NCBI RefSeq assembly: GCF_900458435.1
Contig: NZ_UHCT01000001.1
Coordinates: forward strand, 744,001-808,000
DNA length: 64,000 nucleotides
Direction: 5' to 3'
DNA from: Staphylococcus carnosus
Lineage (GTDB): Bacteria; Bacillota; Bacilli; Staphylococcales; Staphylococcaceae
The notes below the pieces were generated by a model. It searched no databases, was not told the origin of the DNA, and saw only the letters and a program-made list of their open reading frames with translations. This document shows positions 29,810 through 30,423 of the stretch, one piece after another; the first letter of the stretch is position 1, and each line of letters starts with the position of its first letter. The translations under genes were made by a program, and so were the position numbers.

Positions 29810-30423
29810 TAAGCTAATCCTTTAAGCAATACATCACGTTCAATCCATTCAATCACGTTGTCTAAACCTTCTTCAGTTTTTAAGTTTGTGAAAGTAAATG
29901 GACGGTTACCACGGAAAGTATTTGTATCTTCAGCCATTTGGTCTAAAGAAGCGCCGACATATGGTGCTAAATCTGTTTTATTAATAATAAAGAAGTCAGA
30001 TTTAATCATACCTTGTCCACCTTTACGTGGAATTTTTTCACCTTGAGCCACATCAATAATATAAATAGAGAAGTCAACTAACTCTGGACTGAAAGTTGCT
30101 GCCAAGTTGTCTCCGCCTGATTCAATAAAGATTAAATCTAAATCGCCATGACGTTCCATTAATTCATCAATTGCTGCAAAGTTCATAGAAGCATCTTCTC
30201 GGATGGCAGTATGCGGACAACCGCCTGTTTCTACGCCGATAATTCGATCAGCAGGTAATACGCCTGTGTTAACTAAGATTTTTTCATCTTCTTTTGTATA
30301 AATATCATTTGTAATGACACCGATACTCATATCTTTTGAAAGATGTCTTACAAGTTTTTCTACGAGTTCGGTTTTTTCTGCTCCAACAGGGCCGCCGATT
30401 CCAATTTTAACTGGATTAGACAT
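29809..30423 (-). CDS. ureG: Urease accessory GTPase UreG (Walker A substitution)
   Basis: SIMIBI-class GTPase, 204 aa, that drives nickel delivery to urease. Conserved motifs: GIGGPVG at the N-terminus, VITNDIYTKEDE, the metal-binding GVETGGCPHTAIREDASMN and NKTDLAPYVGA (guanine recognition). However the P-loop reads GPVGAEKTELV. The family has GPVG[SA]GKT, so the Gly before the catalytic Lys is Glu at residue 16 (codon GAA at 30376-30378, plus strand TTC). This Gly is needed to wrap the phosphates, so loss or strong reduction of GTPase activity is expected. The rest of the protein appears normal. The gene lies between ureF and ureD. Confidence 0.93.
   Translation of the reverse strand: MSNPVKIGIGGPVGAEKTELVEKLVRHLSKDMSIGVITNDIYTKEDEKILVNTGVLPADRIIGVETGGCPHTAIREDASMNFAAIDELMERHGDLDLIFIESGGDNLAATFSPELVDFSIYIIDVAQGEKIPRKGGQGMIKSDFFIINKTDLAPYVGASLDQMAEDTNTFRGNRPFTFTNLKTEEGLDNVIEWIERDVLLKGLA

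What the first reader, a model, noticed from the sequence alone, without database searches (positions are those of the whole stretch)
30376..30378. Glu replaces the Walker A glycine of UreG
The P-loop of UreG reads GPVGAEKT where the family has GPVG[SA]GKT. The Gly just before the catalytic Lys wraps the nucleotide phosphates and is nearly invariant; Glu adds a charge there. One G-to-A change (GGA to GAA) explains it. The operon is otherwise full length, so standard annotation would call urease intact while nickel insertion probably fails. This predicts a urease-negative or very weak phenotype.
Basis: partly seen in the sequence, partly recalled or inferred. Interest (0 to 1): 0.78.

Follow-up and report, generated by a model that had tools for sequence, protein, structure and literature searches.

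The report
Doubly damaged urease operon in Staphylococcus
A staphylococcus, by its sequence the food species S. carnosus, carries a full-length urease gene set that family models call normal, but two glycines that hardly ever change (one in the nickel-loading protein UreG, one in the catalytic subunit UreC) are acidic residues here, so the enzyme is probably dead.

Summary
UreG codon 16 (window 30376-30378, minus strand) is GAA: Walker A reads GPVGAEKT, in the window and in its own assembly. Of 84 genus genomes searched, 68 encode UreG; the 67 others keep Gly16, as do 109 of 109 other aligned UreG loci. The genome is very probably Staphylococcus carnosus, a strain of which is called nonureolytic (PMC4263730 passage); sibling S. 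condimenti is urease-positive (PMC4337941 table). Family models still pass this UreG and UreC.

The reading is incomplete. UreC carries a second change of the same class, Gly369Asp, five residues after an Asp I recall as a nickel ligand. Over the seven urease proteins these are the only two residues seen in no other locus compared. UreC Asp369 recurs in the protein database (P0121, 10 contigs); Glu16 was not among 161 listed UreG proteins. Near-identical UreC proteins carry other changes at invariant sites (5 of 9, against 8 of 89 in S. simulans-like UreC).

Best reading: a missense-dead urease operon decaying under relaxed selection. Glu16 alone would probably disable it, but need not be the cause of the phenotype. 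The kind is known.

The parts
30376..30378 (-). UreG codon 16, GAA (Glu) at the last Gly of the Walker A motif, just before Lys17-Thr18
32195..32197 (-). UreC codon 369, GAT (Asp) in SSDSQAMDRVGEV; Gly in 82 of 82 other loci that cover it
29809..30423 (-). ureG, urease nickel-insertion GTPase, 204 aa
   Evidence: TIGR00101 312 bits
28970..29809 (-). ureD (ureH-type accessory protein; name recalled from operon place), 279 aa, intact frame
   Evidence: matches in five relatives; no NCBIfam hit
30436..31125 (-). ureF (name recalled from operon place), 229 aa, intact frame
   Evidence: no NCBIfam hit
31118..31570 (-). ureE, 150 aa, C-terminus GHSHD
   Evidence: NF009755
31586..33301 (-). ureC, catalytic alpha subunit, 571 aa, carries Gly369Asp
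   Evidence: TIGR01792 1019.5 bits
33298..33711 (-). ureB, 137 aa, GTG start
   Evidence: TIGR00192
33728..34030 (-). ureA, 100 aa, GTG start chosen by homology
   Evidence: TIGR00193
34031..34334 (-). ureA upstream region, alignable over its length to three sibling species, no large deletion
   Evidence: consensus promoter-like matches only
34335..35276 (+). divergent 313 aa membrane-protein-like ORF; urea-transporter label recalled from its place beside ureA, not tested; full length in three siblings

Best explanation
The window holds a complete-looking urease operon, very probably of Staphylococcus carnosus, that is dead by missense changes. UreG Glu16 puts an acidic side chain where the P-loop backbone must wrap the nucleotide phosphates, so UreG should not bind GTP normally, should not form the GTP/nickel-charged dimer and should not hand nickel to apo-urease. 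UreC Asp369 puts a second acidic side chain into the loop that carries a nickel ligand (recalled), so even nickel supplied by another route would probably not give a normal enzyme. The two changes are best read as decay under relaxed selection in a nonureolytic species; which came first is unknown. Shown: the residues, their invariance in the loci compared, intact frames, an upstream region without large deletion, one UreG in the genome. Inferred: loss of GTP binding, loss of catalysis, order of events, expression in this strain and its phenotype.
For: Glu16: 109 of 109 other aligned UreG loci have Gly; the own genome alone carries the Glu pattern among 84 genus and 398 class genomes. UreC Asp369: 82 of 82 other loci have Gly; of 120 listed UreC proteins 119 have Gly and one, P0121, identical to the window's UreC, has Asp; by pattern 66 of 84 genus genomes have Gly and 1 of 84, the own one, Asp. 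These are the only two residues seen in no other locus over the seven proteins (columns with at least 10 sequences, first residue left out). All seven frames and the upstream region are intact. One UreG and one NicO-type nickel permease in the genome, so no backup UreG and no loss of that permease. Passages of PMC3792862: P-loop main-chain amides wrap the GDP phosphates; P-loop substitution or a non-hydrolysable GTP analogue gives inactive urease; GTP plus nickel makes the charged UreG dimer. At what I recall as the equivalent P-loop Gly of human RHOA, G17V loses GTP binding (PMC6406560 passage) and G17A is used as the nucleotide-free form (PMC5358333 passage). An S. carnosus strain is called nonureolytic (PMC4263730 passage); S. 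condimenti CCUG 39902T and two isolates are urease-positive (PMC4337941 table). UreC is listed in a table of an S. carnosus femB-mutant secretome study (PMC4409834 passage), so the operon is expressed in at least one S. carnosus strain. Five of 9 distinct missense differences among 9 S. carnosus-like UreC proteins fall on invariant columns, against 8 of 89 in S. simulans-like UreC (Fisher p = 0.0018) and 6 of 242 in other listed staphylococcal UreC.
Against: No second sequence with Glu16 was found. No urease assay of this strain. On the own branch the seven genes show 95 silent to 17 coding changes (summed), so relaxation, if real, is recent. RHOA G17E, the same substitution at the recalled equivalent site, rescued growth of a colon cancer line where wild type did not (PMC5003542 passage), so this substitution need not be a simple null in every GTPase. 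Two other UreG proteins have Asp16 (P0241, P0244; one contig each), whose activity is unknown. The 5-of-9 count is small, includes one linked haplotype, rests on sequences whose source names are masked, and is not significantly above the neutral share (binomial p = 0.06).
Confidence: 0.75

Rival explanations
1. UreG Glu16 is real but a passenger: urease function in the lineage was lost first through UreC or by something outside the operon, and Glu16 then arose without cost.
For: UreC Asp369 sits on 10 contigs of the protein database while Glu16 is not among 161 listed UreG proteins, so Asp369 may be the older, more widespread allele. S. carnosus-like UreC proteins without Asp369 carry other invariant-site changes.
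Against: Contig counts come from clustered representatives and cannot date either change; Glu16 could be hidden as a non-representative member. P0122 and P0125 differ from the window's UreC over their length only at residue 369, so some lineages have no other UreC lesion.
Confidence: 0.45
2. Glu16 is a base-call or assembly error, or a mutation of one culture, not a feature of the strain.
For: No representative with Glu16 among 161 listed UreG proteins, although the window's exact UreC allele is there on contigs up to 2,571,392 bp, close to the own contig of 2,571,383 bp.
Against: The assembly is near-complete (2 contigs, 99.99% complete). S. carnosus-like UreG contigs listed with Gly16 (14+2+7 = 23) are fewer than S. 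carnosus-like UreC contigs (36), leaving room for unlisted alleles (hand count, weak, different gene starts and contig fragments confound it). The companion change in UreC is replicated.
Confidence: 0.13
3. Glu16 is tolerated: UreG keeps enough GTPase activity for weak urease, helped by the UreF/UreD complex or high nickel.
For: RHOA G17E is not a plain null in one cell assay (PMC5003542 passage); Asp16 occurs in two other staphylococcal UreG proteins.
Against: Gly in 109 of 109 other loci; P-loop substitution gives inactive urease elsewhere (PMC3792862 passage); the second lesion in UreC; each Asp16 protein is a single-contig variant close to Gly16 relatives (P0244 99.5% identical to L026, P0241 202 of 204 to P0277).
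Confidence: 0.1

Closest known systems
UreG of the G3E/SIMIBI P-loop GTPases (4hi0, 5xkt in the PDB sequence search)
   Same: Whole-length match, CPH metal motif, NKTD motif, TIGR00101 and PF02492 above cut-off
   Different: Walker A ends AEKT instead of [AS]GKT
Urease-negative S. saccharolyticus subclade 2 with a premature stop in ureB (PMC6423177 passages)
   Same: A staphylococcal urease operon present but inactive, there by a small mutation
   Different: There an insertion and premature stop; here two missense changes that family models do not flag
S. carnosus genome decay, 55 truncated genes (Rosenstein 2009 as cited in a PMC6423177 passage; the original is not held)
   Same: Gene inactivation in the same species
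   Different: Those are truncations; these genes are full length
RHOA G17A/G17V/G17E P-loop alleles (passages)
   Same: Substitution of the Gly before the P-loop Lys (equivalence recalled); loss of GTP binding reported for G17V
   Different: Human Rho-family GTPase; G17V is described as acting like a dominant negative, and G17E rescued growth in one assay

Membership tests
UreG urease accessory GTPase | Whole-protein match to the UreG model over its cut-off | tested here: met
   TIGR00101 312 bits against 204.2
UreG urease accessory GTPase | Intact Walker A G-x4-G-K-[ST] | tested here: not met
   GPVGAEKT; 109 of 109 other loci have Gly at this place. It is a UreG by descent; this lowers the claim that it works as one
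UreG urease accessory GTPase | CPH metal-binding motif and NKxD guanine motif | tested here: met
   CPH at 69-71 and NKTD at 148-151 in the translation
UreG urease accessory GTPase | GTP binding and nickel-dependent dimerisation | not testable with these tools
   needs purified protein
Functional urease alpha subunit (UreC) | Match to the family model over cut-off | tested here: met
   TIGR01792 1019.5 bits against 680
Functional urease alpha subunit (UreC) | Gly after SSDSQAM (invariant in the loci compared) | tested here: not met
   Asp369; 82 of 82 other loci have Gly
Missense pseudogene / relaxed selection | Coding changes no longer avoid invariant sites | tested here: inconclusive
   5 of 9 against 8 of 89 in a control group (p = 0.0018), but small, partly linked and from sequences with masked names
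Staphylococcus carnosus (species assignment) | Identity to a S. carnosus reference protein that siblings lack | tested here: met
   Enzyme I residues 1-492 align to PDB 2hro without a difference (organism of 2hro recalled); the three sibling genomes have 98, 96 and 96%. Single gene, no genome-wide identity

The most novel reading that the evidence does not exclude
Urease in S. carnosus is being lost in parallel by different missense changes in different lineages while the genes stay full length: this strain through UreG Glu16 plus UreC Asp369, other lineages through P106L/E315K/A335T or A266V in UreC, or a UreG shorter by three residues (P0013). The species' urease-negative trait would then rest on several hidden point lesions that family models pass as normal.
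Probability: 0.4. Interest if true: 0.5.

Novelty: new member of a known kind. Interest (0 to 1): 0.42.

Why it matters
It shows a pathway that family models pass as complete but that is very probably non-functional, in a species used in food and laboratory work (use recalled). It gives a concrete, testable genotype for a negative trait and warns that urease phenotype cannot be called from gene presence. It would also offer a natural Gly-to-Glu P-loop allele of UreG for studying how GTP binding gates nickel delivery.

Tried and rejected
Single-lesion reading: dropped after searches showed UreC Gly369Asp. Artefact of the window copy: dropped, the own assembly has the same bases. Backup UreG: none found. 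Loss of the NicO nickel permease: not the case, one match without stops (other nickel importers were not searched). Promoter deletion: none seen. Thr in place of the Cys of the UreC flap: seen in the alignment but not unique to this operon, so not counted. A hot spot at codon 16 was considered because of the two Asp16 proteins and dropped: the search with residues 1-42 favours acidic residues there. A report of these two alleles in print: not seen in the listings nor in the passages opened; the S. carnosus genome paper, the 1989 cloning paper and the 1998 subspecies paper are not held. Passages of PMC4266091, PMC5620643, PMC8980526, PMC7347722, PMC3398289, PMC5779714 and PMC6486237 added nothing used as evidence. 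One RAS search found no paper. No structure was predicted: a model would not tell the effect of a single residue.

Full report
Observation. The ORF at 29809-30423, minus strand, is UreG (204 aa; TIGR00101 312 bits, cut-off 204.2). Its codon 16 at 30376-30378 is GAA, so Walker A reads GPVGAEKT. The own assembly G000 carries the same bases. In a tblastn comparison with 110 UreG loci (30 from genus genomes, 80 from genome contigs, at least two genomes being in both sets), 109 have Gly16 and only the own one has Glu; no other of the 204 columns has an own residue unseen elsewhere. By DNA pattern, 66 of 84 genus genomes have the Gly form and 1 of 84, the own one, the Glu form; 68 of 84 have UreG and the one left over, G010, keeps Gly16 with a different first P-loop residue. 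At class level 1 of 398 genomes has the Glu form, without a count of how many have ureG.

Where it is. The genome has 2 contigs, 2,571,383 and 5,450 bp. The nearest named UreG proteins are those of S. condimenti, S. piscifermentans and S. debuckii at 97-98%. Enzyme I of this genome, residues 1-492, aligns to PDB 2hro without a difference, which I recall to be the S. carnosus enzyme; three sibling genomes have 98, 96 and 96% to it. The genome is therefore very probably S. carnosus; no genome-wide identity was computed.

A second lesion. Compared with three sibling genomes, the own branch has 17 coding and 95 silent changes over the seven urease genes (my sum of the call's rows). Two coding changes fall on glycines: UreG G16E and UreC G369D. 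Against the loci held, these are the only two residues in seven urease proteins that no other locus shows: UreG 109 of 109 Gly, UreC 82 of 82 Gly (columns with at least 10 sequences, first residue left out). By pattern, 66 of 84 genus genomes have the Gly form of the UreC site and 1 of 84, the own one, has Asp. The UreC motif here is SSDSQAMDRVGEV; the Asp of SSDSQ is, as I recall, a nickel ligand. In the alignment with the PDB urease 5a6t_C the place is Gly. As a control, one search listed columns that are invariant but for one sequence: among sequences above 80% identity in the protein concerned, the own operon has one each in UreC and UreG, L030 has UreG G11A, L040 has UreC E429D and L042 has two in UreC; the rest are more distant relatives. 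So such a singleton is not unheard of; two in one operon at close range, both Gly to acidic, is seen only here.

Is either change seen elsewhere? The window's exact UreC is in the protein database as P0121 on 10 contigs, the longest 2,571,392 bp (own contig 2,571,383), so Asp369 is not an error of this contig alone. UreG Glu16 was not listed in a full-length search or in a search with residues 1-42 alone (each lists its best 120): 161 distinct UreG proteins gave 159 Gly, 2 Asp, 0 Glu. The two Asp16 proteins are single-contig variants in two other staphylococcal lineages; P0244 is 99.5% identical to the UreG of L026, and P0241 has 202 of 204 residues in common with the S. devriesei protein P0277. 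The database is clustered, so absence of Glu16 is not proof. An error or a culture mutation stays possible, at about one in eight in my judgement.

Wider decay. Nine S. carnosus-like UreC proteins (source names masked by the tool; P0121, P0122, P0124-P0130, 98.9-100% identical to the window's, P0123 left out because its longest contig has the length of a named S. condimenti one) show 9 distinct missense differences from their majority residue, of which 5 (G369D, A266V, P106L, E315K, A335T) hit columns invariant in the 81 loci used. In 56 S. simulans-like UreC proteins it is 8 of 89, in 50 other staphylococcal ones, a mix of species, 6 of 242 (one of 57 and one of 51 were dropped because their length did not fit, and P0131 and P0189 were in no group). 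Fisher tests give p = 0.0018 and 7e-6; against a neutral share of 26% the 5 of 9 is not significantly high (p = 0.06), while the simulans-like count is far below it (p = 3e-5). This fits relaxed selection in S. carnosus. Limits: few changes, three of the five linked in one haplotype, no tree, names inferred.

Function. From passages of PMC3792862: the P-loop main-chain amides wrap the GDP phosphates in UreG, P-loop substitution or a non-hydrolysable GTP analogue gives inactive urease, and GTP with nickel drives the charged UreG dimer off the UreF/UreH complex. At the Gly before the P-loop Lys in RHOA (equivalence recalled), G17V loses GTP binding (PMC6406560 passage) and G17A is used as a nucleotide-free form (PMC5358333 passage); G17E, the same substitution as here, rescued growth in one cell assay where wild type did not (PMC5003542 passage), which speaks against calling it a simple null everywhere. 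I infer that Glu16 UreG does not cycle GTP and leaves urease without nickel, and that Asp369 damages the active-site loop as well. There is a single UreG, a NicO permease, intact frames and an upstream region that aligns to siblings, so no cruder cause was found in the operon.

Phenotype. PMC4263730 calls the S. carnosus strain used to express S. saprophyticus urease nonureolytic (passage; the original 1989 paper is not held). S. condimenti CCUG 39902T and two isolates are urease-positive on VITEK2 (PMC4337941 table). UreC is listed in an S. carnosus femB-mutant secretome table (PMC4409834 passage). None of these is known to be the window's own strain.

Verdict. This is an example of a missense-dead operon that family models pass as normal, of a known general kind, with a possible species-wide decay pattern worth a named-strain survey.

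Noticed in passing
window 32195-32197: UreC Gly369Asp, not mentioned in the finding; treated above as part of it.
   Followed up: yes
L129, L130 (genome G021); L131, L132 (genome G014): The urease genes are split in these two staphylococci: a membrane-protein gene with ureABC at one place and ureEFGD at a distant one on the same contig. Some other genus genomes also have the ureC pattern far from ureG or on another contig.
   Followed up: partly
L124 (genome G065): ureA, ureB, ureC, ureE and most of ureF are missing while ureG and ureD remain, beside a partial membrane-protein gene: a remnant urease operon.
   Followed up: partly
L030 (genome G010): UreG reads GAPVGAGKT: the first Walker A Gly is Ala, seen in no other locus compared.
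   Followed up: no
P0013: A near-identical UreG (7 contigs) that is three residues shorter, with RGNRLTNLK where P0001 and the window have RGNRPFTFTNLK.
   Followed up: partly
P0241, P0244: Two UreG proteins from other staphylococcal lineages with Asp at the same P-loop position, one contig each.
   Followed up: partly
L126 (G000:C2, 5450 bp): Small second contig with a 311 aa replication-like ORF, a 205 aa membrane ORF and a 115 aa regulator-like ORF that look like a cadmium-resistance (cadD/cadC type) plasmid; labels recalled, not searched.
   Followed up: no
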